NCBI GenBank assembly: GCA_017590115.1
Contig: JAGGNK010013559.1
Location: 504,933-568,932, forward strand
Source of the DNA: Montifringilla adamsi
Lineage: Eukaryota; Chordata; Aves; Passeriformes; Passeridae
Length of the DNA: 64,000 nt
Reading direction: 5' to 3'
Shown piece by piece: positions 1 through 58,900 of the stretch. The position numbers and the translations under genes are program-made. Position 1 is the first letter of the stretch. Each line of letters starts with the position of its first letter. Under the pieces are notes generated by a model. That model did not search any database. It was not told the DNA's origin and saw nothing but the letters and a program-made list of their open reading frames with translations.

Positions 1-270
1 ACACTGCAGGAACACATCAATGACTACAGACTGGAAGCACATCAGTGCTGTGAGGTACAAATGTCTCAGAAGATAATAAAGACAAAAATCTACTTTTCTG
101 CTTTTCTGCAAAATTGGGCACAGAAGTACATCTGAGTTTTTCCTTTTTCTCAGTAACGCAATGCTCAGAGGCACCACAACTTCCTGTTCTTTCCTCCTTC
201 AGCTGTAACAATTTTTCTTGGAGCACAGAAGTGGCTGTTTCCTTCCCATAGCTCTCGGTTTCCCCTGCAG
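1..270 (+). other. IGFN1 intron end
   Basis: Intron sequence ending in the polypyrimidine tract and cag acceptor at 270. I see no exon here. Confidence 0.7.
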
Positions 271-543
271 CCATCCCAGCGCGGTTCCGGCAGCCGCTCT
301 CCGACATGCGCTGTGCCGAGGCCGGGGACGCCGAGTTCCAGTGTGTGCTGTGCACGCCCTGCCACCAGCCCCTGTGGCTGCACAAAAGCCACCCCCTCCA
401 GGCCAGTGACAAGCACCAGATCTCTGTGACACCTGATGGCCTGACCCACAAGCTGATTGTCAGGAACGTGAGGCCCTCGGACAGCGGCCTGTACACGCTC
501 GACGCGGGACAGGGCTCCTCCAGCGCCTGGCTCCTTGTGGAGT
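271..543 (+). CDS. IGFN1: IGFN1 exon: Ig I-set domain before the repeat exon
   Basis: The acceptor is tttcccctgcag and the donor is gtgagt at 544. The exon is 273 nt, phase 1 at both ends, so it can be skipped or duplicated without frame loss. The translation begins IPARFRQPLSDM and ends SAWLLVE. Ig landmarks are a B-strand Cys in AEFQC, a C-strand Trp in PLWLHKS and the F-strand signature DSGLYTLDAG, where the usual Cys is replaced by Leu. The lost disulfide fits a cytosolic sarcomeric Ig. This is the first exon visible in the window and earlier exons must exist upstream. An alternative donor GT at 542 is weaker and breaks the phase. Confidence 0.85.
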
Positions 544-3500
544 GTGAGTGCTTGGCAGCGGGTTGTTCCCATGGTGTGTTGGCACAAAACATGCTTCTCA
601 CTGCCTGGTGGCTCAGGGAGATGTTGCTCTGCTGGGAAATTAATTGCTGAGCCTCTAAGTCCAAAATTATGGCTGAGAAAACTGGAGGTGTTCAGTGTGG
701 AGAAGATGAGAGTCCAGGGAGACCTTGGAGCCCCTTCCAGGGCCTAAAGGGGATCCAGGAGAACTGCAGAGGGACTTTGGAAAAGGGATGGAGGGACAGG
801 GAAAGGGGGAATGGCTTCCCACTGCCAGAGGGCAGAGTGAGATGGGATATTGAGAAGGAATTATTGGCTGTGAGGGTGGTGAGGCCCTGGCCTCACCAGA
901 GAGACTGTGGCTGCTCCATCCCTGGAAGTGTCTGAGGCCAGGCTGGATAGGGCTTGGAGCACCCTGAGATATGGAAGGTGTCCCTGCCCATGTCAGGGGG
1001 CAGAATGAGATGAGTCTTAAGGTCCCTTCCCATCCAAACTGTTTTGTGATTCCATTATTTTAAATCCTGTTTGGAAAAATGAATGTCTGGTTAGACCCTC
1101 TTTCCTCTTCAAATGAGACCAACTTTTCCCCTTTTAATTAGTCCTGACAAATCCTCTTGGCTTGTTTGCTCTACAGCTATGGTGAAGTAGCACATTCTCC
1201 ATCACTTATTGGAAAAACGCTCCCTATCTCCCCACATGTTTTTGAGAAAGCTGTCCCAGTGATCACAGTGCAGCAGGCAGGGGCTCAGGGAGCTTTTAAT
1301 ACTCTCAGTTCTACACTATCAATGCCATTCTTCTTGCTAGATAACATTTTTCATTCCAAATTAGAGTTAAACATGCTGGAAAGAGCTCAGAGGAAGCTGG
1401 AAAGATGGGAACACAGTGCAGGAACATTCACAGTCACTTGGCTTACATTTGTTTACTTATGAGAGGTGGTTCCTTTGGTTCCCTTTGACTGTGGTTTCCT
1501 TTGGGATCCTCTTGCAGCAGCAGGAGGGGTCTCTCTCACAAAGGCCCCTCCAAACCCCCTCCAGAAAGTAGGTTTCTGAAACAAATAAATTTCCCTTGGA
1601 TTTCAGTGAGCTGTGAGCTCTGATAAATTATATCTGACCTGGAAACCAAAGCAGTGAGTGACCTGCTCTCAGAACAACCTGAATTTCAGATTAATCCAAA
1701 GCTATTCACAGATCTGAAAGCTTTAGTCCTTAGGTTGGGCATCCCTAAACCAGCCATTATCCAGATGTGCAAGCTGCCTCCAGAGCAGTGAAATCCCAAT
1801 TCCAGGGTGGGAACTGATGGCTCCTCTGTGCCTGGAATATTCTGTAACTCCTCCATAGCTGGAGGGTGAAGGCAGACAGAATTAATGAATCCCACATACA
1901 GTCTCAGCCCCTCTAAATCCAACCTGCCATGCTGGAAGTTTCTTTTTCTGTTATTTTTGGTTTGTTTGTTTGTTATAATGAGCATGTTTCCATTAAAAAA
2001 ACAATGCATTTTAACTAAAAATAATTGTCTTCAACTAACATTTCATTGTCTGAATGTGGCATTGAAAAATTCAGGATTTGAAATTATTTTAAATTTATTT
2101 AAATGTATTGTGTGTGTGTGTGTCCTAAAATGAAATTCAAAAAGTGTTAACACATTTTCTTTGGTTGTTGATGCAGTGCATGTCCTATTGATTTTCTGTT
2201 ATTTTGTTCCCCTCTTTTTCTGTAAATTGTAAATCTGCTGTCATGAAACAATGCAACTTCAGATGCCAAAGGAAAGAGGACACAGGATGAAGGAGAAAAG
2301 ATTGAAAGGGAGACATCTGAGTGGCTGAAAGAAACAATGGCAGACAACGAAAGGGCGAGGAAGCTTCGGCGCCAAGAACAAGCTGCTGCTGAAGGTCGTC
2401 CTTCCTTTTCCACATCTTCTGGTGTGGAGAAAAGTGGCTGGTCCAGAACAGGCCAAGGCAGCAGTCAAGGCAGGGGCCAAGGACACTCTGTTGATTCTGA
2501 TGATGGAAGCCAAAGATTTTTGGGAAAAGAAGGGCTACGCAAAACCCACATGAATGGAGAGATGGGGTCTGGGCAGTTTTCTGGAGCAGGTCTAGATGGA
2601 GACTCAGCAGCCAATGACAGCAGCATCTTTGGGCTAAAAGGCTTAGGGGGCAGAAGTGGGTTAAGGGCTGTCCATGGCATGGACTCTGTGTCAGGCAGAG
2701 CAGGTCCAGGTGGTGCAGTAGGAGGGGCAGGTGAATGGAATTCTGTGGATGGCAGAGGTGAAGGTTTGCTGGGTGCTGTTAACGTTGACATGGATGATGG
2801 AGAAGGTTTGGGCTCTCAGCATGACAAGGATGGGAATTTAGGTGATGCCAGTTACAGAGCTGGTTTTGGGGGTGCTGGGAGGTTGGGTGGTGAAAGTTCT
2901 GTGCCAGATGGCCTTGATCCTGATTCAGCTGGAGTGGGAGCCAGTGTGGGTGATTTGTTCAGCAGGACTGGTCCAGGAGCTGGAGGTGGGGGGAATGCTG
3001 CAGGTGCTGGAATGGCAGGAGGAATGAGGTCCCACCATGGCAAGGATGGGCATGCCACTGTGGGTGATATGAATGGAGCAGGTGTAAACAGAGAGGGACA
3101 AACAGGGACTCCCTATGGCAAGGATGGCCTGACACCTCATGCCAGTGGTCAGTTAGGGCAGACAGGAAGATCTGGCTCATTATATGGGCCAGGACGCCTT
3201 CCAGGTGGAGATGGGGCTACACCTGGTACAGGTGGCAATTCTGCAGGAGAAATGGAGGCTTTGTATGGTCCAGATGGTCAGGCACTGGCAGCAGGTGCTG
3301 GTGGAGCTGGTGCAGGAGGATTTGGGTCTCCCTATGGAAAGGATGGTCTCCCAGCTGGGGCTGGTTTTGGTGGTGTTGGTGCAGAGGGACTTGGAGCTCC
3401 CTATGGGAAAGATGGTCTCCCAGCTGGAACAGGTGCTGGTGGTGCAGGAGGATTTGGGTCTCCCTATGGAAAGGATGGTCTCCCAGCTGGGGCTGGTGTT

Positions 3501-6500
3501 GGTGGTGTTGGTGCAGAGGGACTTGGAGCTCCCTATGGGAAAGATGGTCTCCCAGCTGGGGCTGGTGTTGGTGGTGTTGGTGCAGAGGGACTTGGAGCTC
3601 CCTATGGGAAAGATGGTCTCCCAGCTGGGGCTGGTGTTGGTGGTGTTGGTGCAGAGGGACTTGGAGCTCCCTATGGGAAAGATGGTCTCCCAGCTGGAAC
3701 AGGTGCTGGTGGTGCAGGAGGATTTGGGGAGGCTTTGTATGATGGTCGGCCACTTGGAGCGGGTGTTGGTGCTGGTGCTGGTGGTGGTGCTGGTGCAGGG
3801 GGATTTGGAATTCCCTATGGGAAGGATGGTCTCCCAGCTGGAACAGGTGCTGGTGGTGCAGGAGGATTTGGGGAGGCTTTGTATGATGGTCGGCCACTTG
3901 GAGCGGGTGTCGGTGCTGGTGCTGGTGGTGGTGCTGGTGCAGGGGGATTTGGAATTCCCTATGGGAAGGATGGTCTCCCAGCTGGAACAGGTGCTGGTGG
4001 TGCAGGAGGATTTGGGGAGGCTTTGTATGATGGTCGGCCACTTGGAGCGGGTGTCGGTGCTGGTGCTGGTGGTGGTGCTGGTGCAGGGGGATTTGGAATT
4101 CCCTATGGGAAGGATGGTCTCCCAGCTGGAACAGGTGCTGGTGGTGCAGGAGGATTTGGGGAGGCTTTGTATGATGGTCGGCCACTTGGAGCGGGTGTCG
4201 GTGCTGGTGCTGGTGGTGGTGCTGGTGCAGGGGGATTTGGAATTCCCTATGGGAAGGATGGTCTCCCAGCTGGAACAGGTGCTGGTGGTGCAGGAGGATT
4301 TGGGGAGGCTTTGTATGATGGTCGGCCACTTGGAGCGGGTGTCGGTGCTGGTGCTGGTGGTGGTGCTGGTGCAGGGGGATTTGGAATTCCCTATGGGAAG
4401 GATGGTCTCCCAGCTGGAACAGGTGCTGGTGGTGCAGGAGGATTTGGGGAGGCTTTGTATGATGGTCGGCCACTTGGAGCGGGTGTCGGTGCTGGTGCTG
4501 GTGGTGGTGCTGGTGCAGGGGGATTTGGAATTCCCTATGGGAAGGATGGTCTCCCAGCTGGAACAGGTGCTGGTGGTGCAGGAGGATTTGGGGAGGCTTT
4601 GTATGATGGTCGGCCACTTGGAGCGGGTGTCGGTGCTGGTGCTGGTGGTGGTGCTGGTGCAGGGGGATTTGGAATTCCCTATGGGAAGGATGGTCTCCCA
4701 GCTGGAACAGGTGCTGGTGGTGCAGGAGGATTTGGGGAGGCTTTGTATGATGGTCGGCCACTTGGAGCGGGTGTCGGTGCTGGTGCTGGTGGTGGTGCTG
4801 GTGCAGGGGGATTTGGAATTCCCTATGGGAAGGATGGTCTCCCAGCTGGAACAGGTGCTGGTGGTGCAGGAGGATTTGGGGAGGCTTTGTATGATGGTCG
4901 GCCACTTGGAGCGGGTGTCGGTGCTGGTGCTGGTGGTGGTGCTGGTGCAGGGGGATTTGGAATTCCCTATGGGAAGGATGGTCTCCCAGCTGGAACAGGT
5001 GCTGGTGGTGCAGGAGGATTTGGGGAGGCTTTGTATGATGGTCGGCCACTTGGAGCGGGTGTCGGTGCTGGTGCTGGTGGTGGTGCTGGTGCAGGGGGAT
5101 TTGGAATTCCCTATGGGAAGGATGGTCTCCCAGCTGGAACAGGTGCTGGTGGTGCAGGAGGATTTGGGGAGGCTTTGTATGATGGTCGGCCACTTGGAGC
5201 GGGTGTCGGTGCTGGTGCTGGTGGTGGTGCTGGTGCAGGGGGATTTGGAATTCCCTATGGGAAGGATGGTCTCCCAGCTGGAACAGGTGCTGGTGGTGCA
5301 GGAGGATTTGGGGAGGCTTTGTATGATGGTCGGCCACTTGGAGCGGGTGTCGGTGCTGGTGCTGGTGGTGGTGCTGGTGCAGGGGGATTTGGAATTCCCT
5401 ATGGGAAGGATGGTCTCCCAGCTGGAACAGGTGCTGGTGGTGCAGGAGGATTTGGGGAGGCTTTGTATGATGGTCGGCCACTTGGAGCGGGTGTCGGTGC
5501 TGGTGCTGGTGGTGGTGCTGGTGCAGGGGGATTTGGAATTCCCTATGGGAAGGATGGTCTCCCAGCTGGAACAGGTGCTGGTGGTGCAGGAGGATTTGGG
5601 GAGGCTTTGTATGATGGTCGGCCACTTGGAGCGGGTGTCGGTGCTGGTGCTGGTGGTGGTGCTGGTGCAGGGGGATTTGGAATTCCCTATGGGAAGGATG
5701 GTCTCCCAGCTGGAACAGGTGCTGGTGGGGCTGGTGGTGCAGGGGGACTTGGATCTCTCTATGGAAAGGATGGTCACCCAGCTAGGGCAGGTGATGCTGG
5801 TGTAGGAGGATTTGGAGAGGCTTTGTATGGTCCAGATGGTCGGCCACTTGGAGCAGGTGTTGGTGGTGGTGCTGGTGCAGGGAGATTTGGAACTCCCTAT
5901 GGAAAGGATGGTCTCCCAGTTGGAGCAGGTGTTGGTGGGGTTGGTGTAGCTGGTGTAGGGGGATTTGGATCTCCCTATGGGAAGGATGGTCTCCCAGCTG
6001 GGGCTGGTGGAGCTGGTGCAGGAGAGGCTTTATATGGGCCAGATGGTCGGCCACTTGGAGCAGGTGTTGGTGGTGGTGCTGGTGCAGGGAGATTGGGAAT
6101 TCCCTATGGAAAGGATGCCCTACCCGATGGCGCTCGTGGAGCTGGTGCAGGAGAGGCTTTATATGGGCCAGATGGTCGGCCACTTGGAGCAGGTGTTGGT
6201 GGTGGTGCTGGTGCAGGGAGATTGGGAATTCCCTATGGAAAGGATGCCCTACCCGATGGCGCTCGTGGAGCTGGTGCAGGAGAGGCTTTATATGGGCCAG
6301 ATGGTCGGCCACTTGGAGCAGGTGTTGGTGGTGGTGCTGGTGCAGGGCGATTTGGAATTCCCTATGGGAAGGATGGTCTCCCAGTTGGAGCTGGTGTTGG
6401 TGGGTCTGGTGATACAGGGGGACTTGGATCTCCCTATGGAAAGGATGGTCTCCCAGCTAGGGCTGGTGGAGCTGGTGCAGGAGAGACTTTATATGGTCCA

Positions 6501-9500
6501 GATGGTCGGCCACTTGGAGCAGGTGTTGCTGGTGCTGGTTTTGCAAGTGCCAGGGGAACTGGAGCTCCCTATGGAAAGGATGGTCTCCCAGCTGGAGCAG
6601 GTGCTGGCATTAGTGGTGCAGGGGGAGTTGGGGGTCCCTATGGAAAGGATGGTCTCCCAGCTGGAGCAGGTGCTGGTGGGGCTGGTGGTGCAGGGGGTGT
6701 TGGGGGTCCCTATGGTCTGCCAGTTGGAACTGGTTTTGGTGGTGTTAATGCAGGGGGACCTGGAGCTTCCTATGGGAAGGATGGTCTCCCATCTGGAGCA
6801 GGTGCTGGTGTTAGTCGTGCAGGGGGAGTTGGAGGTTCCTATGGAAAGGATGGTCTCATAGCTGGGGCTGGTGAAGGTGGTGTAGGACTTGGAGAAGCTT
6901 TGTATAGTCCAGATGGTCGGCCACTTGGAGCAGGTGTTGGTGGAGCAGGTTCTGCAAGTGCCAGGGGAATTGGAGCTCCCTATGGAAAGGATGGTCTCCC
7001 AGTTGGAGCAGGTGCTGGTGGGACTGGTGCAGCGGGTGTTGGGGGTCCCTATGGAAAGGATGGTCTCCCAGCTGGAGCAGGTGCTGGCATTAGTGGTGCA
7101 GGGGGTGTTGGGGGTCCTTACGGAAAGGATGGTCTGCCACTTGGAGCAGGTGATGGCATTAGTGGCTCAGGGGGTGTTGGGGGTCCCTATGGAAAGGATG
7201 GTCTGCCACTTGGAGCAGGTGTTAGTAGTGCAGGAGGTTTTGGGGGTGCTGATGGAAAGGATGGTCTGCCACTTGGAGCAGGTGATGGCATTAGTGGCTC
7301 AGGGGGTGTTGGGGGTCCCTATGGAAAGGATGGTCTGCCAGTTGGAGCTGGTGTTGGTGGGATTGGTGGTGAAAGAGAAGTTGGAGCTCCCTATGGAAAG
7401 GATGGTCTGCCAGTTGGGAGTGGTGGTGGTGGTGGTTCAGGGGGAGCTGAGAGTCCCTATGGAAAGGATGGTCTCCCAGCTGGAGCTGGTGTTAGTGGTG
7501 CAGGGGGTATTAGGGGTCCCTATGGAAAGGATGGTCTGCCAGTTGGAACTGGTTTTGGTGGTATTAATGCAGGGGGACCTGGAGCTCCCTATGGGAAGGA
7601 TGGTCTCCCAACTGGAGCAGGTGCTGGTGTTAGTGGTGCAGGGGGAGTTGGGGGTCCCTATGGAAAGGATGGTCTCCTAGCTGGGGCTGTGGCAGGAGCT
7701 GCTCATTTTCCTCTTGGAGGTGAGAAAGCGATGGGATCTGGCTGTGGCACAGATGCCACACTGAGCAGAACTCCGGGATATGCAGGTGGAGCAGGAGGAG
7801 AGGGTTTTTCCAGGGAAGGCTCTGCACTGTGGGGTGCAGGGTCTCCCTGTGGCGAGAACAGAGGGTCAGCTGTAGCCACGGCTGGTGCAGGTGGAGTTGG
7901 GAGGTTGGGAGGGGATGAATGGGATTCAGTCCATGGTAAAGGAGGTGTGGAAGCTGCTGGTGGACCAGGTGGTGAATATGGGCTGGATGCACATCTTGGC
8001 AGATCTTTGAGAGGTGAAACTGGAAAGGGCACTGCCAGTGATGTCGGAGGGCCAGGGAACAAAAGTTCAGCTGGTGACAGAGGGTCCCTGTCAGGTCCAG
8101 GAGGAGCCAGGGGAAAGGGCAGAGATTTCAGACAGTTGGGCTCCCTTTATGACACAAATTCTGCCTTTGGAGAGGCAGGGAGTAAATCCCATGACAGATC
8201 TGTTGACGGGACTAGTTCAGGTGGGTTTGGTCAAGGTCCACTGAGTTATGGCCAGATGTCAGGTCCTTTTGGTGGACCTCCTTCAGCAAACCAGAGAAAC
8301 CAGGAACCTGACCTGGATCTTAAAGCAAGTGATTCCCTGAACAACACGGAAAACACAGCACAAAAGAGACGGAGTGTCCTGGATGATATCAAAGGTACGT
8401 GGTTAACTGCTGACTCCTGGTCTTTGCATTTTGATACTCACATTCCTAATCCTGCAAAGAAATTGATGTTATGGTTTAGATAAACACAATTCTATAGAAA
8501 TTTGGTTGTCCCGTGATCTGTTCCTAATTCTCCCACTGGTTGGCTGTTTGATCTTACACAGTGTGCTCTGATCAAACTGCCTTAAAGGTCTAAATTATTT
8601 TCTTTGTCTAAATTATCTAAACCAGGTCTCATCTCTTCATTTGTGTTTCACATATCATGGAACAGACCAGTTCACAAACATACCACTTCCCATAAAGTTT
8701 CAAGGAGTATCATCATATTTCTTTGATACTGTTCCAATTCAAAACTGATGGTTTCACTTCATTTTTCAAAAACCTACTGTAAAGAACTGTGTTTTCCAAG
8801 TTCTGGAAGCAATTCTGTGCCTGCTTATATGGGATTATATAATGTATAGAGTTATTTTCTCTTGTAACATCAGGAATAATAAGGTGTTGCATAGAGTAAG
8901 AGGGGAGTAATGTGTTTGCAGTCATTTGAGTAAGACCTGTGGCTCCACCAACAAGATGATGATGTGAAAATTGTAGGAATTAGAAATTTCAGGTGTATAA
9001 TCAGAGGGGAATATTGGCCTAATGGGATGGTTCACAAGTTAGGAATTATCATTGCTAAGCCATAAATATAAACAAGGAAATAAAATCATCAAAATTTGGG
9101 TTCAGGAGGAAGATGTGGGGTATATATTAGAGACAAGATTATGATGGTAATGGAGAAGAACTTGGGAAGAGAAAGAGGAATACATGGGTGGAGAGCAGTA
9201 TGCCTGGGGCTGTTTAAGGGATATGTTGGGCAGCCCTATGTGTAGTCAGTGCAGAGGAAGAGGAGGATGAAGCACTATATCCACAACCTGGAGCAGCCTG
9301 GTTTTTTCCACTGGCTGTAGAGGGAGGCAAGACAATTGGCACAGACATAAACTAGCAAATCCACAGCTGGATAATGTGATTTGTGGTGAATCCATTGCCC
9401 ACGAGGTGGATATCGGGATAGTTGATAGCTGATGTTGGCCCTCAAGGCACTGAGTGTACCTAGCTGGCCCACACTGAGGTGGCACAAAAGCCTTTCCTGA

Positions 9501-12500
9501 CCAGAGGATGTTTTTTTTAAAAGCTCTTTTTACCTCACGTGCCCATGCATTTTCAGCTCTAGGTGTCTCTCTGTAGCACAGACTTAGCTTCTTTCCCTTC
9601 CTTTGTGCCTGTTCAGTCCCGCGCTGTTACCTCAACAAGCAGCTGGCAACCGTGCGAGTGCTGAAGGGGGACCCAGCTGAGCTGTCCTGCACTGTCAGCA
9701 AGGACAACGTGACAGGAACCTGGTTTAAGGATGGCCTCAAGGTGGGTGCCTTGAGCTTGCTGTTGCCTTTGGGTAGCAAAGCTCTGCTTTCTGGCTCTAC
9801 TTCCTAAGGGTGGTGTCAAGGTGTCCTTCCCGCTGACAGTCACCTGCAGCTTGAGTGGGGCCCTGGAAGGGTCCCCAGAATCCCAGAGTGGTTTGGGTTG
9901 GAAGGGACCTTACGGATCATCCAGTCCCACCCCCTGCCCTGGGCAGAGGTACCTTCCACTAGACCCAGGCCTCGTCCAACCTGGCCTCGGACACTTCAGG
10001 GATGGGGCAGCCACAGCTTCTCTGGGCAACAGAATATCAGAATATTGTCGTTAAATATGGATGACATTCATAAGTCTTTTCAACTGCATTTCAAATTGTA
10101 GTCTCTCCAGTTTTAGTTTTGGATTGCATTTTTTCCTTTTTTTTTTTAAAAGGATAGGTCTCTGTCCTTTATTTTGCAGTTAACAAGTATGGATGGAGTT
10201 GTGTTTGAAAAGAAAGGTCTTGTCCACAAACTGATCATCAACAAGGCTGAAGATATTCATGCTGGGAAATACAGATTTGAAGGTGGAGATGTAAAAACTG
10301 AAGCTTCAATTTTTGTTGAAGGTGAGTCTAGTCAAACCATCAAGGCAGCATGAGATGGGCTTTAAATGTAATATATTTACTCAGAGACATATTATTGGTT
10401 ATTGAGATAAATTTATTGTAAAGAATTACAAGATAAATGGGAAATGGTTTTTGTACTGGTTGGTTCATTTTGCATTTGCAAATTTAACTAGGGACGATTC
10501 TGCCAGCAACTCGAATATTTTTGGGGTACACAAAACACTTTACCAGGGCAGACTCTTTATTCTTGTGTTTAGTGTGTTGCCTAGGAGAAATTTTCTGTAG
10601 TGAAAGGACAGTGTGATACCACAAAATTTTATGATAATTATCCTGTAGCAAAGTACAACTAAAGGTTCAGATCCAAGTGTTGTGAGCTTCTAAGCATTAC
10701 TGGCAGCACCATGAGGGGATCCCTTCCCTCCAAGGTGAGCCTTATCCTCCTTGAATTGTGGTTTTTAATGACCTTGTATCACCTGCTTAGATCCTCCCCA
10801 GGTGGACAAAGTTCTCCTCAAGAACTTGACCAGTGTCCCCACAGTGGCCAAGGCCGGGGAGGGAGTGAAGCTGCGGATCCCGTTTGAGGGCCGGGGGCCC
10901 ATCAGGGCAGCGTGGCTGAAGGACAGGATGGAGCTGGGGGATGACACCAGGATCCGTGTGGACAAGACAGACACCTGCACCACACTGTCCATCTCCAGCT
11001 GTGACAGGAGGGACTGTGGGGATTACAAAGTCAGGCTCAAGAACGACAGTGGTGTCCTGGAGATCAACCTAAAGCTCGTGGTGATAGGTAAGATCCTATA
11101 ACATTCACTGTGGCTTTCACTGTAAAGCTTAGTCAGGGAATCCATTGACACTGGTGACAACCTTATTTGGAGTGACTGGGTATTTTGAGAGGAACAAGAC
11201 TCTGTATATTGCTCCAAAATCAGGGTACAAGGAAAGATTGCTGAACATGCTTCATGCCCTTTAGTACAAGGGAACACAAACCCAGTTTGGTTTTTTTATG
11301 GCCTAAGCAGCTGAGTTTTGAATGTTCAGACACTGTGGGAGATGTGACTGTACACAACATGCAAATCTGAATTAGGACATCAAGGTCCAATTCAGCCCTT
11401 CCATAAATGTCTGGGCTCCTTTGGGAGACCAGAAATGACATTTTGCCTGTATTAGCAAGCTGAACAATGCTTATGAGAACTATTGACCCAGGGAGAGCAA
11501 GGGCCTGGCTTTCCTTCTTCTCCATCAAAAGTCAGAAGAGTGCAAGTTTTGAAGAGGCAATTCACATTCCCAGCCCTCATCCTACAACTGTGCCTGCATT
11601 TCATCAGGAACAATCTCCCAGCTGGTGAGCAAGGGACAGTGTCTGCTCCAAACCCAGGAGCAGGTCTGGGTCTGGAGCCAGCTGTGTCTCTGTTCATCTT
11701 TCCAGACAAGCCACAGCCTCCAGCAGGACCCATCAAAATTGTAGAAAGCTCTGCCAACAACATCACGATCCAGTGGAAGCCCCCAAAGGACGATGGGGGC
11801 AAACCAGTGCAAAGGTACCTCGTGGAGAGGCAGCAGGTGGGCAGGAACGACTGGGAGACTTTGGGAGAAACCCCCAGGAGCTGCACCAGCTTCACCACGA
11901 GCAAAGTGGAGGAAGAGATGAGCTACTACTTCAGGGTGAGGGCCGTGAATGCCGAGGGAGCGAGCGATGCGCTGGAGTCAGGGGAAGTGAAGGCTGCTGG
12001 TAAAGGTGAGGAAAACTTCTCATAATTCATAATTCAATTTGGGAAATTCATTATCAAAGCTGACATCAGAGGAAACTCACTGCATTGTGTATGTTGCTAC
12101 AGATCTCAACTTCAGTCTTCACACAAAGTTGTGGAGGTTGCCCAGCAAGAGCAGCAGTTCATTGTAGGCTCTGCTGATGCTGAGTGAGATGTAATTATTC
12201 CTTGGTCATGCTCTATTTTGGATTGGAAAGGAAGTTTCATGGGGGAAATGTAAAACGCATCAAGATCAAAGGAAATTTTTCTCAGTGTGGCTGCAAAGGG
12301 AATATGTGAGACCTTTTCTTAACTCCACAGGCAAAAGAACTTATATGCAGCCCTTCTCAGCATGACCACTCCATTCCCCTGATCTCCAAACAACTGAATA
12401 TTGGTTTTGTCCTTCAAGGAGTTTAAATACTAGAACAGGTTTGCCATGAGCACAAATGCAGTACTAGAGAGAGCAATGTTCAGTTCTAATTATCTTCTTT

Positions 12501-15500
12501 CTCCATTCTCATTCCCATGATTCTGTATCTTGAACACTTTAGCAGAGGGCAAAGAAAATCCATTTTGTTACCAGTTCCTGTTGTTGAAAGCAAGAATGCT
12601 GCTGATTGTTCATATGTAGGAATGACACACCCCACTGGCAGAGGAGCTGTCAGTCCTGATGACAGCAGGTCTTTTGTGAAATCCAAACTCAGGAACAGAG
12701 TCCATGCTGGATCCAGTTTGTGTGGGGAACAGAATCCACAGCTTCAGGTCTCAGCCAGGTTTTCAAAGCACATCCATAGGAGTACCTGGGAGAATCTGGA
12801 AGAAGAAATTACACACAGCACCATTTTATCTTTTCATAAAAACATACCTGCTAATAATGAAGCCCTCATCTCTTTGTAGCTTCCCCTGGTGCCCCAGGTC
12901 CCCCCGAGATCATCAGTGCCAGCAGGGACACCATCACCATATCCTGGAAAGCTCCTTGTAAAACCGGCACTTCCCAAATTATGGGATACATTGTTCAGAA
13001 ACGCAAGAAGGGCACTGTGACCTGGCTGCCAGTCAACAACGTGCCTGTCAGAGGTGGGTATTCTGACTCCTGGAACAGCCTGGTGGATTTGAAAAGGCAA
13101 AAATGTCAGCTGGGTTTAGGAGCTGCTTAGGATCTTACACCTTTCACATCAAGGTGGTGATGGGTGACTTTGGAGGTCTTTACCAACTAAATTATTCTGG
13201 GATTCTGTGATTCAAGGGCTGTTTGATTTTGAAAGGAATACAATGAACACATCCCAGAAGATCACATGCACTTGGCTAGGGAATGGCAGGAGAATCAGTG
13301 ACAGCTTTTATGGCTCCTGAGAGTTTTTCAGTCCATAATTCTGCCTGAAGTAAGGCACGGCTTTGTTGTGTCACCTTTCCTGATGGGGAACAGCTCCCCT
13401 GAGGCAACACCCCTCTCCTCTCCTCTCCTCTCCTCTCCTCTCCTCTCCTCTCCTCCCCTTGCCCCGCCGGGCCCGGCTCGTTCCCCTTCCCTCTCCCCTC
13501 TCCCCTCTCCCCTCTCCTCTCCCTCCTTCCCTCTCCCCTCTCCTCTCTCCTCTCCGCAGACAAGAAACTGAAGGTGAGCAGCCTCAAGAAGGGTGTGCAG
13601 TATGAGTTCCGCGTGGCAGCTGTCAATGCTGCTGGCACAGGACAGCCCAGTGACCCCTCAGAGCCTGCCTTTGCCCGGGACCCCACCGGTAAGTGCCCTG
13701 CGCTGTGCTCTGCTTTCAGGGTATTCGTGGAGAGATGTTCTTAAATCCTCTGTAAAAGTGTGTGGAGACAAAGATCAGTAATTGGGGAATGTTTCATGGC
13801 TGAGAATCAGCTGGAGGAAGGAATGGAAGGATTTCCTGTAGGATGTCCAAGTCAAGATTTGGCAGATCCCAGTGCGGGGTGATGTGCAGTGTGGAGGAAC
13901 ACTCAGGAGGGGCCACAGAGTGTTTTGGAATGTTGTGGATTTACTGCAGGGCTGGTAGGAACAAGGACCCAGATCCAGCTCTGAAGAACTGGGATGAGGT
14001 GGGGCAAGACAGCACGGTGGAAATCCAGTGCACTGCAAGAATGTTGGGGAATCTGAGGCAGTGACTGAAGAGGGAAGAGAAATCCTAAAAAAATAGTTTA
14101 AATAAAATTTCTCCATCCAGAATCTCCAGGCCAAGTGCGGGGCCTTAAAGTGAGCAGCAGTGACAGCACCAGTGTCACCTTGACATGGAACAAACCTGAA
14201 GTACAAGATGGGAATGATGTGAAAGGCTACGAGGTGGAGATGAGGCCCTGTAACAGCCTCAGCTGGACCAAGTGCTTCACCCTCCCCGCGGAGAGCACCT
14301 CGTGCAGGGTCCAGGGCCTGCGGGCCGGGGAGAAGCTGTTCCTGCGCGTCAGGGCCCTCGGCGACGGCGGCCCCGGGGAGGCCTCGGAGCTCGAGGCGTG
14401 TGCTGGAGCTGCTGCTGCTGTGGGTGAGTCGGGCCCGGGGCTCTGTCCCCGGAACGGGGCTCTGTCCCCGGGGCTCTGTGCCCGGGAACGGGGCTCTGTC
14501 CCCGCGGCTCTGTCCCCGGGGTTCTGTCCCCGGAACGGGGCTCTGTCCCCGGGGCTCTGTGCCCGGGAACGGGGCACTCTGCCCGGGGCTCTGTCCCCGG
14601 AACGGGGCCCTCTCCGGCAGAGGAGCGGCCGGGCTGTGGCGCTCCGGGAGCTGCTGTCGCCAGGCTCAGCCGAGCACAGGGCAGCGCTGCTCCTGCTCAC
14701 CTCGGGGTTATCTGCTCACCTCAGCAGGGCACTCTCAATATTAACTGATGTTATATATGCAGTGCACAGTGCTCAGCTCATTTTAGAGACTCCTCTGGAC
14801 AAAACAACCCTCAGAACTCCATTTTCTCCTTGGATTTACATTCTGCCCCCTGTGCAGGACCACACCACAGTCACCAGGCAGAACCCTGCTTGCACTCTTC
14901 CAAGGGAAAAATAGTTTCCACTCAATTTTTAGGCAGTTCTGAAATGAAACATTTTATTTCATTCTCTTAAATCACATTTTTAATGCTGGTTTTGGATACT
15001 TTATTTTACTTTTTAATTGTTTAGTTTGAAAGTTTTTACCATTTTCGCTTTTCCATCTTTATTTACAATCTGCAGCTTTGTTTTTTCCCTGCTCTTTGGG
15101 AACAGAGCAGAATTACAGATGTAAGAGATAATTCTGTGATGAGTTCATCTTCCTTAACTTGGATCCTAAGTGAAAATTTCTACTTTGGCATATGCCCGGA
15201 GACCCCATTTATCAATAAAAAACCTAAAATAAAATAAATCTATCTAAAGCAGGTGTTCAGTTCTATACTGGAAACACTAAATATAATTTAGCATTACTGT
15301 ATTTGGTATTCTTAGATAAATAACTGCTGTAGTATATTCATGAAAAGAGAAAATAGTATCTTTTAAATGCTAAAAAACACTATTTTAGATAAACTCTGGC
15401 AGCTTTCCTGTGGGTGTTCTGTGCTCTGTACTGCATATATAAGTGTTCATTGGAATGTCTTTTTTCCAGACCCCATTTAAACACAAAAGATGATCTCTTT

Positions 15501-18500
15501 GATGGGATAAAGTGTGGCAAAGAGCAAATTTCTCTGTGACTGAGACATCGCATGAATAGAGAGATTGTTGTGAATGTATTTTTACATCATTTTCCCTTGT
15601 TTAGTCATGGTGATAAATAATTAGTAATGAAATTTGAGAGGTGTAAAGTCTGCGACTGAACCAGGGAGATTTTTTCCCACTGTGAGTCCCTCACCAGCCT
15701 CATTCAGCTGGGAGAGGCAGCAGGGGGTGGAACACTGTAATTGTCACCAGTGACTGCACCAACATCTGCCTTTTGCGAGTAATCTTTGTCTCTTCCAGTC
15801 TCTCCCAGGTTACTGATAGATGACACAGTGAAAAGCTTCCTGGTTATAAAAGCAGGGAATCCCATCCGGGTGAAGATTCCCTTTGAGGTGGGTATTCAGG
15901 GCTTTGGAGGAATTCCCTGCCTGGTTTTATAGCAGACAGGAAAACGTGAGCCACTGTTTTTATGTCATGGAATTTTGTTTGCAAGTCACTGGGCAAATAA
16001 TTTGGCCTGCCTGTGCTGTGTAGACTTTCAGGGTGAGGAAAACACAAGCCAGAATCGAGTCGTCAGTCTTGGCATTGGTGTTTTATGACATTATGGTCAT
16101 TCCTTAACCTCTGCAGACAAGGCTCAGTGCTGTCCACGTAGCCTTATCAATGTTATCCTCATCTGGTACTGCTCTGTCAGGTTTCCCAAATCAGGGATTT
16201 CCCTGTGAGTCCCTCAGAAGGTCTTGGGGTACCACATTCCCAGCAACACCTTCACTGGGCTTGCTCACCAAACAGCAGCACTTGAGCTCTGTGACTTGAG
16301 AACTTGGCAGGCACTGACAGAAATCTCAGTGCTTTGGAGTAAGCTTGGAACAACACAGGCTTTTCCTCATGGGAAATGTGGTCAGGCTTTGGAAGGGGCT
16401 GCCTAGGGAGGTTTGGAGTCACCATCCTTGGAGATGTCCAAGGAATACCTTTCGTGTAAAAAGTGTAAAAGTGCTTTTAAGGTGGGGATGGGGCATGGGT
16501 TGGACTCGATGCTCTTGTAGGTCTTTTCCAGACATAAATGATTCCATAATCCTGTGAAGTCTGGGATACCATAGGAGGGTGATGAAGGGTGTGTATTTGC
16601 TGGCCTTTCTCCTAAGATGGCACAATGGAAATAAAGACTTAGAGGATGGTTTTTTCTTTCCAAAACCAACAGATCTTTTTTTTAAAAAGCAGAAAATACT
16701 GTCTCCTGAAGTTATCTGTCCTTGATCTGGCATAGCTTGTTTGACACAGTTCTGAACAGTTTACTGCAATTACATCCTTAAAGGACAAAAAGGAAAAAAA
16801 ATTGTAAATAAACTATAGAACAGATCAGGGCTCTCAGATCCATCGTGGATCTGTATTTCTAAACATTACTACATCGTGGAGGTGCATATTTGGGGTAAGA
16901 TAATGAAACTAAGATACAAGACACAGTCTGGAGGTGAAACAAGTGGCTGTGAGTTGTTGCTGTTTGCAGGGATCTCCCGAGCCGGTGGTGACCTGGTTAA
17001 AGGATGGGCTCCCCCTTCCCAGCCGGGCTGCCGTGAGCACCGAGGATGGAAGCAGCCAGCTGCTGCTCAGGGCAGCCGAGCTCAGTGACAGCGGCACCTA
17101 CACTGTGGAGCTTGGGGATGGGCTGGGCAAAAGGGAGACCTTCAGCTTCCAGGTTCAAATTACAGGTAACTCACTGCCATCCATACAAATCTACCAGCAA
17201 CTCCCAGCCAATCCAGGCTGGGGCATGAAGGGACTGAGAGCAGCCCTGAGAGAAGGACTTGGGGGTGCTGGTGGATGAGAGCTGGACATGCCCTGGGCTG
17301 ATCCCCCAGCATGGGCAGCAGGGGAGGAGAGGATTCTGCCCCTCTGCCCCCTCAGGTGGCACCCCACCTGCAGAGCTGCCTCCAGCCCCCCAGCAACAGA
17401 AAGATGTTGAGCTGCTGGAGCAATTCCAGGGAAGGCCACGGAGATACTCAGAGGGCTGGAGCCCCTTTACTCTGGAGCCAGGCTGGGAGAACTGGGGGTG
17501 TTCATCTGGAGAAGAGAAGGCTCTGGAGAAATCTGAGAGCCCCTTCCAGTGCCTAAAGGGGCTCCAAGGGAACTGGAGAGAGACTTGGGACAAGAGCCTG
17601 GAGGGACAGGACAAGAAGGAATGGCTTTTCACTGCCAGAGGGCAGGGTTGGATGAGATATTGGCAAGGAACTCCTCCCTGTGAGGGTGGTACAGGCTGCC
17701 CGGAGAAGCTGTGGCTGCCCCTGGATCCCTGGAAGTGTTCAAGGCCAGGTAGAACAGGGCTTGGAGCAATCCAGGATAGTGGAAGGTGTCCCTGCCCATG
17801 GCAGAAGGTGGGACTGGATGGGCTTTTAGGTCCCTTGCCACCCAAACCAGTCTGGGCTTCCATGATTTACTGTGAGTAGGCAGAAGGCCACAAACTGAGT
17901 TTGGCAGGGTGAGCGCTGATGCAGTTTGTGCAGGCACAGGGAGAACCAGGGTACAGTTTTCTATGAGATTGTCTGGGCACTTTATGATCTCACTTGTTTG
18001 CAGGACAGAGCAATCCACTGACTAAAACTATCCTTCCACAGTGAATGAGGGAGGTCAGCACAGGCTGTAGGACACTGAGCACAGCTCTCCCAGCTGTCAC
18101 CCCAGGAGGAGAAGCAGCTCAGTTGTTCCACCCTCCTCTCACTGCTCAGCCAGTGCAGATATTGTGCAGCAGCAGCTCAGTTCATAGCAAAAGCATTTGT
18201 GTGCCTGGAGCAGGAATGGCATTTTGTCCCTTCCAGTGATCAGGATGATCACTGATCCCCAGACATGCAACAGACTCCAGGATTTTAGGGTTCTGTGCCA
18301 CTGTCCCTACAGCTGTGTCATTGTGTGCCCTCCCCTGGCAGATATCCCTCAGCCCCCTGGAGCCATCCGGCTGGAGGAGAATGTGCCCAACACAGTGACA
18401 GTGACCTGGGACCCCTCAGCATCTGAGCAGTGGGAGAAGAACCTGTATTACACTGTCCTGAAACGGGAATCCCAGAAGGGCCTGTGGCATGTCCTGGGGG

Positions 18501-55900: not shown

Positions 55901-58900
55901 ACTACACGCCTTGTAACTCATAAGCAGATATTCACTGTCTCCACTTGTTTCTTGGCACAAGAAACAAGATTCAAGAATCTCTTCTTACTCATTTTTCACT
56001 CCCTTTACTCCCTTTCTAAGGAACTAATAGATGGGAGGGGAAGAAAAGAGCATAAGGAAATTAAAAATAACTGCAGGGACTGCTGGAAGGTCAGAATGGG
56101 GCATCAAGCTCCATGATGGTGGGAGATTTGCAGTGAGATCCTGTAATTACAGGGTGGGTTAGGCCCTGTGTGTTGGGAATAAATCACTTTCTCTATTGCA
56201 AGGGTCACATTTCAGCTTTCAATTCTGCTTTAAAGCTCCTGGATGCCACGTCCTGATCCCCCAGTGTCCCTGATACCCAGGTGGGGTTTGGCTCCTTTGT
56301 AAGGGCTGCAGGTTGGATAACCTCCCATAAATTTTGGGCTCAAAAATGCTTGAGAGGCCCAGGAAAGCAGTAAACGGGCAGCCGGGCGGGCCTGGCAGTG
56401 CCCAGCTCAGCTCAGCCCTAACGCTGTGTTTGGTGTTCGGCAGCTCTACAACGGGACGCTGAAGCGGGACGTGGAGAGCCGGCGCTACAGCTCCTACAGC
56501 CAGATGGAGGGCTGGGCCAGCCGGGCCCACGGCAAGGCGCTGTGCAGCCCCCGGGCCGGCAGCGACTACTGCTTCGTGCAGAACATCAAGAGCAGCCGCA
56601 GCGAGCCCGACCTCTACTGCGAGCCGCCCCGCGGCACCCTGCGCAAGGCCCACGGCGGCGGCCGGGCCGAGCACAAGGCCACCCTCAACCGCCAGAGCAT
56701 CTACAGCAGCTGCAGCACCCAGCAGGGAACCAGCAGGACCAGTAAAAAAGTGCCAGCGCGGGCCCTGTCCTGCCCCTCGAGCAACAAGCCCGACGTGGTC
56801 TATGCCCAGCCTGTGATGAGCTGCAAGCAGGACGGGGTCTATGGACAGGCCCAGTCCAGCTCCAAGTAAGTGCTGTGACCCTGAGGGAGTGTGGACGGTG
56901 CTCGGAGCTCTGTCCCCCGGAGCGAGGCACCTGCGCTGCTGGAGAGCCCTTACCAGCGCGTCCTGCAGCAAAGTGGGTCAGATGAGTCACTCTTAAGGGC
57001 TGTATTTCGTTTCCTGGGCTGTGGAGGGGAGCTGATAGGACTGGCTTAGTGCAGATATCTCTGCTGTAGCTCTGTGACATTGGGCAACACAATCCCTCAG
57101 TCTCTGGTGGCATTTACCCACAATGGTATGAGGATGGGGAGGTGAAGGGCAGAAGGCCTGATGTGCAGTCAGGGTGTCTTTCATGGCTGTCCTTCTGCTT
57201 CAGCCTGGCAGAAAACTTACCCAAAAAACCCCTGTCTTGGAAAAAGTCAGTTCCTGAGGGTCTTACTCAGAGCAGAGCTGAGAGCCTGCTAAGCAGTGGT
57301 GTTTCAATCTCTTCTCTCTACCCAGCCCCTACTTAAGTTGCCCAAAAGGTCTGATTTGGGTTCCAGAAAAAAACTGAATCATAAATTGAAATAAATATCC
57401 TAATTGAAATAATCTGACTACCCAGCAAAGAGGAGCCAGTGGAAGCTGTTCAATTCTTTCCTGTCCAGAGCATCCAGTCCTATTTGGGATAGGAAATATA
57501 TAAGGGTGGGGGATAGTCCATCATGTTTGATCATCAGATCCCTTCTTGTAGATGTTGCCTACAAGCACAGGGCGTGTAAAACACAGCGGTGAGCTCAGAC
57601 CCTCCCAAGCATGTACCTGTGAATGCAGCAGAGTTCCCACTGACAGTCACCTGGTTGGTGGTGATTGAATGCTGCCCCAATGCCCTGTGCTACCTCCAGC
57701 TCTGGAGCACCAACCATGTTCTGTTGCAGTCTTGGGGGAGACTTGGTCTGCACAAGCCATAGTCTTGGAAGCCTTGGAAGACCATGGTTTGCATATTTTG
57801 AACTGCAAAACGTTGCAGTGAAAGCTGGAGAAGGAGGGGCTGCAGCTTCCACAAGAGTTCCCAGGGCTACTGCACTTCCTGTGCTGCATCACCATCACGC
57901 AGGACTGGCTCTGCACCAGCCCAGAAGCTCTCACAACTCCCTGACAGAGGGAGAATTTTATCACACTAACTGTAAAAGCTCCCAAACTCATTCCTGGTGG
58001 TCCCTGGTCCCAAGGAGAAATTTCTCACTGCAGGATGTGTATGAGACTGTTTATCAGGGCTCATAGACTTTGTCAGAACTCCCAGCAAAGGTCTGAAACT
58101 GTTGAGTTGTTGCCCCAAGGAATGATGGAGATACTAAGAAAATCCCCTTCCCTTTCAGCAGCGTAAGCCAAAACATGCCCTTTTCTACATCTGAATGTCC
58201 CAGGTTACTCTGGCTAAGCCTCCCTCCTTTGGGATTGAGTAGGAGGCTATGTCCCAGAGCAAGGATGCCAAGAAACATCACTGCCCCAGAATGTTAGGAC
58301 AGAATGTTATCATAAGCCCTTGGCTGCCCTTGTGCCCAGTTACTCCATGTTTGACACATGCCAGATTAGCCCTGGCCAGCCCAGAGCACTGGCGGCCTTG
58401 GCTTGCTGCTGTCAGCAGCTCTGTAAATCTTCTGGAACAGGATCCAGAGATGTTACACAAACTGGAAGTGATCTGTTTTAGGGAATTTCTCATTGAAGAG
58501 CAAAAAGTGTAGTGGGGGGGGGGGGGGGGGGGGGGGAAAGGGTGGGACCNNNNNNNNNNNNNNNNNNNNNNNNNNNNNNNNNNGGGGGGGGGGGGGGGGG
58601 GGCGGTGGCAGAATGCTGGAACTCAGGGCTGCAGCTGCCTTCTCCTAGGGAGGACACAACTTTGGAGCAATTAGTCCTGGAAGGCGCTGGCCAAAGCCAC
58701 GGTCAGGGACTTGGTCATGGCTTTGGAGAAGTCACTTGGAGAATGATGGCATTTTCTGAGAGGAGAGCTGCTGTTTTGAGAGGGATCCTCTCCAGCTCTG
58801 GTTGCCCTTGGTTAGGGAGTGGCTCCATTTACACACTCCTGGCTTGGGGCACGGCTCATCTGGCAGAACTGGTTCTGCTGTGGAAACCTCGGGCTCCAAG

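What the first reader, a model, noticed from the sequence alone, without database searches (positions are those of the whole stretch)
3721..5736. Homogeneous 144-bp coding array inside IGFN1: a likely hypervariable protein-length VNTR
Fourteen in-frame units of 48 codons. Copies 2-13 are identical, including synonymous sites, while the repeats on either side are diverged. Identity at silent sites means the array spread very recently or is kept uniform by gene conversion or unequal exchange; it cannot be explained by protein-level selection alone. The unit is a multiple of three, so copy-number change alters protein length without breaking the frame. Individuals or species may carry IGFN1 molecules differing by steps of 48 residues in a sarcomeric spacer.
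Basis: partly seen in the sequence, partly recalled or inferred. Interest (0 to 1): 0.78.

Follow-up and report, generated by a model that had tools for sequence, protein, structure and literature searches.

The report
Freshly amplified repeat in bird muscle gene
In a sparrow-like bird, a 48-amino-acid segment of the muscle protein gene IGFN1 that its close relatives carry once appears about fourteen times in near-identical copies, showing that this stretch of the gene can be rebuilt over short evolutionary times.

Summary
Window 3721-5736 holds 14 in-frame 144-bp units: copies 2-13 are letter-identical, copy 1 differs by one silent base, copy 14 by three bases at its 3' edge. The unit is a dimer of two related monomers (21 + 27 residues) inside a 6,132-bp, phase 1-1 exon of IGFN1. 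Its non-repeat flanks are 96-99% identical to IGFN1 of the snowfinches Pyrgilauda and Onychostruthus.

New here: the amplified dimer (marker LYDGRP) occurs once in 19 of the 20 related proteins that have it, both snowfinches included, and 14 times in the window. It also sits in a new place in the monomer order, with a hybrid monomer at its right edge. A silent GTT/GTC difference traces the spread: 13 of 14 units carry GTC. This fits recent lineage-specific amplification by unequal exchange or slippage. Other birds carry different homogenised arrays in the same segment.

Not shown: variation among individuals, the true copy number, or any effect of length. It is a clear new member of a known kind, a coding minisatellite in a disordered spacer.

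The parts
270..543 (+). IGFN1 exon coding an N-terminal-side Ig (I-set) domain; donor in phase 1
   Evidence: Pfam I-set E 2.1e-08; aligned to P0001 residues 313-403 at 97.8%; junction LLVE-YAKGKR found in P0001, P0003, P0008 and P0024
2263..8394 (+). The repeat exon, 6,132 bp (2,044 codons), phase 1 at both ends
   Evidence: AG before 2263 and GTACGT after 8394; length divisible by three; no Pfam match
3324..3662 (+). A-type monomers before the array: A1, an A5-like one (3393-3455) and three A1-like copies; includes the exact 69-bp array 3474-3697
   Evidence: monomer table; exact runs
3663..5736 (+). The amplified A5-B2 dimer array: A monomer at 3663 (GAP-variant), then 14 B2 monomers (27 residues, EALYDGRPL) alternating with A5 monomers (21 residues); the finding's units are 3721-5736
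   Evidence: 13 A monomers identical in DNA and 13 of 14 B monomers identical
5679..5750 (+). Hybrid monomer at the right edge: first 15 codons identical to the array's A5, end like the A2 monomer of relatives (GAGGAGGAGGL)
5751..7718 (+). Diverged A and B monomers after the array (A3, B1, A4 and others), including the exact 129-bp array 6007-6347
9617..19424 (+). Later IGFN1 exons: eight C-terminal domains Ig-Ig-FN3-FN3-FN3-Ig-FN3-Ig
   Evidence: P0001 aligned segments; seven of the eight have Pfam Ig or fn3 matches, the first Ig (9617-9744 and 10174-10320) is judged from sequence only

Best explanation
The array is a recent, lineage-specific tandem amplification inside the repeat exon of IGFN1. 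The exon of relatives carries a row of Gly-rich monomers, mostly 18-27 residues, of two related types: A (xYGKDGLPxGAG...) and B (GEALYGPDGRPLGAG...). One B variant is two residues shorter (EALYDGRPL) and is kept as one A5-B2 dimer in many passerines. In this lineage misaligned exchange between monomers (unequal crossing-over, or slippage in replication or repair) placed the dimer next to A1-like monomers and multiplied it to about 14 copies; a silent T/C change arose within it and came to be carried by 13 of the 14. Units are multiples of three and the exon can be skipped in frame, so each step adds 48 residues to a disordered spacer without touching the Ig and FN3 domains. Shown: identity, silent identity, single-copy relatives, changed order, hybrid edge. 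Inferred: the exchange mechanism, the direction of the silent change, and that the spacer is a length-tolerant flexible linker.
For: Exact copies. Silent differences per silent site: B monomers 0.006 in the array, 0.145 among 6 outside, 0.255 between; A monomers 0.016 (hybrid at 5679 counted in), 0.323 among 29 outside, 0.28 between; the 13 other array A monomers are one sequence. LYDG[RQ]P once in 19 of 20 related proteins that have it, twice in P0048, 14 times in the window; 126 of the 147 sequences examined have none. At least one GPDG-type B precedes B2 in 19 of those 20, in the window none does. Valine codon of PLGAGV is GTC in 13 of 14 units and GTT in the first unit and in all 7 others in the exon. 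Flanks differ from the two snowfinches at only 9 and 14 of 589 residues while the repeats are rebuilt.
Against: No DNA of the relatives was available, so silent changes cannot be polarised outside the window, and GTC does occur as 4 of 63 valine codons elsewhere in the exon. Relatives are gene models that may omit or mis-splice repeats; P0011 and P0048 of one species disagree, and P0011 has no GPDG-type B at all. Order and count here rest on one assembly. Unequal crossing-over, slippage and gene conversion are not told apart.
Confidence: 0.8

Rival explanations
1. Assembly artefact: the true array is shorter, longer or less uniform, and assembly or gap filling copied or collapsed units. The order change would then be suspect too.
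For: Identical 144-bp units over 2 kb cannot be resolved by short reads (general knowledge). The window has one 34-N gap at 58550-58583, so the assembly is not gapless; its technology is unknown.
Against: Both ends are anchored: copy 1 has its own silent base and the right edge is a hybrid monomer. Short-read assemblies tend to collapse, not expand, such arrays (general knowledge). Long arrays of other units appear in other birds' models.
Confidence: 0.13
2. An old array of about 14 units, shared with relatives, kept uniform by gene conversion without much change in number.
For: Gene conversion would give the same silent identity; the call data inside one genome do not separate it from expansion.
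Against: Both snowfinches, about 98-99% identical in the flank before the array, show one dimer, as do most other passerine models that have it, and the order around it differs.
Confidence: 0.05
3. Selection on the protein alone kept the copies alike.
For: The motif YGxDGxP recurs in the monomers of the bird models examined, so some constraint is likely.
Against: Copies agree at silent sites as well (about 42 per unit), while monomers elsewhere in the exon differ at 15-32% of silent sites.
Confidence: 0.02

Closest known systems
[quoted passage not shown]
   Same: This is that gene: source-named hits at 99% in the flank, Ig and FN3 domains around a large disordered segment, and eight C-terminal domains as published for the largest isoform (PMC5493368).
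   Different: The A5-B2 dimer is amplified here and single in close relatives.
Protein-coding minisatellites / VNTRs (MUC1, MUC2, MUC6 and the like; recalled, with PMC6269512 on MUC2 and MUC6 seen only as a listing)
   Same: In-frame tandem units in a repeat exon, uniform at silent sites, differing between lineages.
   Different: Length variation among individuals is established for mucins and not tested here; the gene is an intracellular muscle protein.
Higher-order repeats of satellite DNA (recalled)
   Same: A multimer of diverged monomers is multiplied as a block and is far more uniform than the monomers around it.
   Different: Coding, about 2 kb, and not a satellite.
Elastomeric Gly-rich repeat proteins such as elastin and silk (recalled)
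   Same: Gly-rich repeat (21 of 48 residues are Gly) with no predicted fold.
   Different: No sequence relationship was sought or found, and no mechanical data exist; a likeness of composition only.

Membership tests
IGFN1 | Close sequence identity to annotated IGFN1 in non-repeat parts | tested here: met
   98.9% and 98.6% over 444 residues before the array to P0001 and P0003; 97.1% and 95.8% over 240 residues after it; names
IGFN1 | Eight C-terminal Ig/FN3 domains after a large disordered segment | tested here: met
   P0001 segments along 9616-19424 and Pfam (the half-domain frame 12861-13130 scores 24.6 against a cut-off of 25, and the first Ig was not scanned)
IGFN1 | Disordered segment can be spliced out in frame | tested here: inconclusive
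   The exon is phase 1-1 and skipping it leaves an open frame; no transcript of this bird was seen
Coding minisatellite | Tandem in-frame units uniform at silent sites | tested here: met
Coding minisatellite | Unit number differs between lineages | tested here: met
   1 against 14 dimers in the gene models compared
VNTR (in the strict sense) | Unit number varies among individuals of one species | not testable with these tools
   No reads or second individual available
Elastomeric repeat protein | Disordered Gly-rich repeats acting as an entropic spring | tested here: inconclusive
   Four units folded alone: mean pLDDT 40.8, no helix or strand element, a weak test; mechanics not testable

The most novel reading that the evidence does not exclude
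The IGFN1 spacer exon is a bird-wide amplification hot spot in which homogeneous arrays are repeatedly born, moved and erased, so that individuals of one species differ in IGFN1 length by whole repeat units and that length tunes Z-disc or sarcomere mechanics.
Probability: 0.12. Interest if true: 0.75.

Novelty: new member of a known kind. Interest (0 to 1): 0.42.

Why it matters
It gives a clean before-and-after view of a coding array: one dimer in close relatives, about fourteen here, with a silent base tracing the spread and a hybrid monomer marking an exchange. Flanks about 98% identical beside rebuilt repeats make IGFN1 a good natural test of how fast coding arrays turn over, and of whether the length of a disordered spacer in a muscle protein is free or selected. 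It also warns that IGFN1 gene models and isoform lists in birds may be unreliable in this exon.

Tried and rejected
Whether the unit occurs elsewhere in this genome is unknown: the search of the window's own assembly did not complete. The species was not settled: two snowfinch genera are about equally close (9 and 14 of 589 flank residues differ; the two differ from each other at 11). A third protein search with a wider length range listed no closer relative among its best 120 of 225.

Selection alone was rejected on silent sites. DNA structure as a cause: no G3+ quadruplex motif in the array and one in the exon, 42 G2-type motifs in the array on the + strand, GC skew 0.32-0.51 in the 500-bp bins from 2501 to 8000; left as a possible aid to instability, unproven.

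Age: if one burst made the array, and with assumed rates of 1-5e-9 per site per year (recalled), no change in 1,961 bp gives an upper bound of 0.3-1.5 My on all sites, 0.9-4.6 My on third positions only. Nested duplication would loosen this, so I do not lean on it.

Literature: IGFN1 + VNTR, 1 paper, which only cites an IGFN1 splicing article. IGFN1 + tandem repeat, 12 papers, two opened for passages, the rest seen as listings. IGFN1 alone, 272 papers, 40 listed; IGFN1 + repeat + glycine, 22 papers, 20 listed. Searches with looser terms drifted: the 15 papers listed hold no mention of IGFN1, so that search says nothing; one search gave one fungal paper. PMC7584501 is not held.

Full report
What is there. 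On the + strand the window carries part of IGFN1. Pfam finds an I-set domain in the frame 252-650 and Ig or fn3 matches in all eight later frames scanned, one of them (12861-13130, half a domain) just under its curated cut-off; the repeat frame matches nothing. The snowfinch protein P0001 aligns exon by exon up to 19424: nine of the later segments I assign to exons are at 92.8-100%, and three, where the alignment runs over exon ends, are at 70.2%, 77.3% and 81.9% (weak hits between paralogous domains left out). Read this way, eight domains follow the repeat exon, Ig-Ig-FN3-FN3-FN3-Ig-FN3-Ig, the number published for the C-terminal side of the largest IGFN1 isoform (PMC5493368: abstract, passages and the Introduction read). 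The first of the eight was judged by eye. The repeat exon is 2263-8394, 6,132 bp, phase 1 at both ends. Joining the exon before it to the exon after it leaves an open frame, in keeping with the published splicing out of the disordered segment in IGFN1_v1.

The array. Fourteen 144-bp units lie at 3721-5736; copies 2-13 are identical, copy 1 has one silent difference, copy 14 three differences in its last bases. The unit is a dimer of a 21-residue A monomer (GIPYGKDGLPAGTGAGGAGGF) and a 27-residue B monomer (GEALYDGRPLGAGVGAGAGGGAGAGGF). Diverged A and B monomers fill roughly 3.3-7.7 kb, with two more short exact arrays, 69 bp x 3.25 and 129 bp x 2.64, and 132 bp x 1.66. Silent differences per silent site are 0.006 among array B monomers, 0.145 among the six outside and 0.255 between the groups; for A monomers 0.016 (the hybrid at 5679 counted as array), 0.323 among 29 outside and 0.28 between. 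Without the hybrid the 13 array A monomers are one DNA sequence, and 13 of 14 B monomers are too.

Before and after. The closest relatives found are IGFN1 models of Pyrgilauda and Onychostruthus: 98.9% and 98.6% identical over 444 residues before the array and 97.1% and 95.8% over 240 residues after it. In both, the dimer with the telltale EALYDGRPL (two residues shorter than EALYGPDGRPL) occurs once. Searches fetched 146 related proteins. Twenty carry LYDG[RQ]P: 19 once and P0048 twice, the second copy running into what looks like a shifted frame; the other 126 have none. The 20 come from 15 named genera, all passerines by recall, and one protein with a cut name (P0050). The window has 14. 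So the dimer is a single-copy passerine feature that was multiplied in this lineage. A silent base traces the spread: the valine codon of PLGAGV is GTC in 13 of 14 units and GTT in the first unit and in all seven such codons outside the array. GTC is not unique to the array (4 of 63 other valine codons in the exon), and no relative's DNA was available to prove the direction.

Moved as well as multiplied. With my own labels, Pyrgilauda and Onychostruthus run A1-A2-A3-B1-A4-A5-B2-A6; Geospiza shows A2 to A6 of the same row; Zonotrichia and Ammospiza lack A4. As a check on all 20 proteins with B2, a GPDG-type B monomer lies before B2 in 19; the exception, P0011, has no GPDG-type B at all. In the window none lies before the array. 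Here the A5-B2 array stands before A3-B1-A4, and the monomer at its right edge begins like A5 (first 15 codons identical) and ends like A2. Misaligned exchange between similar monomers would leave this behind. It rests on gene models of relatives and one assembly, so it is inference.

The segment as a whole turns over. I scored the best tandem array in 74 sequences: the window and 73 of the 146 proteins, chosen as the longest model per species with several species entered two or three times. Thirty-six of 74 have three or more copies and 17 six or more, window included in both. Units differ: 23 residues in Pyrgilauda, 46 in Onychostruthus, 18 in Acridotheres, 26 in four of five parrots, a different 48 in Rhea, 52 in Chrysolophus. 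The window has the longest exactly periodic array of the set (691 residues; next Chrysolophus, 463), though Acridotheres has more copies (15.8) of a shorter, less uniform unit. Against a simple story: 38 of 74 have no array of three copies, many entries are isoform models, two models of Ficedula (P0011, P0048) disagree, and each search saw only proteins within a length range, scored about 8,000 candidates and listed 120 of 178, 212 and 225 hits.

How it most likely works. Unequal exchange or slippage among similar monomers, tolerated because units are multiples of three and the segment is probably disordered: four units folded alone give pLDDT 40.8 and no regular structure, a weak test since no alignment was used. 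The coding strand is G-rich along the repeats (GC skew 0.32-0.51 in the 500-bp bins from 2501 to 8000). Of 41 + strand copies of GCTGGTGG in the window, 38 lie in this exon, 29 in the array; the word equals the E. coli Chi site (recalled) but here follows largely from Gly- and Ala-rich coding, so I conclude nothing from it. What the length does is unknown; a flexible linker is the plain reading.

What is not shown. No second individual, no reads and no DNA of relatives were available. Hypervariability within the species, the exact count and any effect on muscle remain open.

Known or new. Coding minisatellites that become uniform within a lineage are a known kind. In the held library I saw no report of such an array in bird IGFN1 (mostly as listings; passages in 16 and 17); most subscription papers are not held. 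One human study lists IGFN1 beside mucin genes in a table of genes with many loss-of-function calls (PMC12581843, passages), which may point to mapping trouble there too.

Noticed in passing
window 3157-6029: Because of the array, three other frames are also open for 850-950 codons: 3157-5805 (+, 882 aa), 3180-6029 (-, 949 aa) and 3217-5781 (-, 854 aa). Mechanical results of repetition and codon bias; automatic gene finders could mistake them for genes.
   Followed up: no
window 3474-3697 and 6007-6347: Two further exact tandem arrays in the same exon, 69 bp x 3.25 and 129 bp x 2.64, so amplification has happened more than once recently in this exon.
   Followed up: partly
P0012 (Lonchura striata) and P0048 (Ficedula albicollis): P0012's best repeat (LELPMERMVSQLEQVLVLVMQGV) resembles another reading frame of the window's repeat, and P0048's second LYDG copy runs into a frame-shifted-looking tail: likely annotation or assembly frame slips in this exon.
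   Followed up: no
IGFN1 models of Corvus, Anomalospiza, Falco, Phaenicophaeus: Very many predicted isoforms per species (numbers up to X49; one cluster has 50 members). In Onychostruthus X2 and X6 differ by repeat units only partly. RNA reads jumping between repeats may mimic introns, or the exon may really be spliced internally.
   Followed up: no
window 3721-5736: The octamer GCTGGTGG (E. coli Chi sequence, recalled) occurs 29 times in the array and 38 of 41 times in the exon on the + strand; probably a by-product of Ala-Gly-Gly coding.
   Followed up: partly
window 13412-13555 and 14434-14615: Two non-coding tandem arrays between IGFN1 exons: CCTCT/CCCTCTC type and a GGGGCTCTGTCCC type.
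   Followed up: no
window 58550-58583: The only run of N in the window, 34 long, flanked by G-rich sequence; a reminder that the assembly is not gapless.
   Followed up: no
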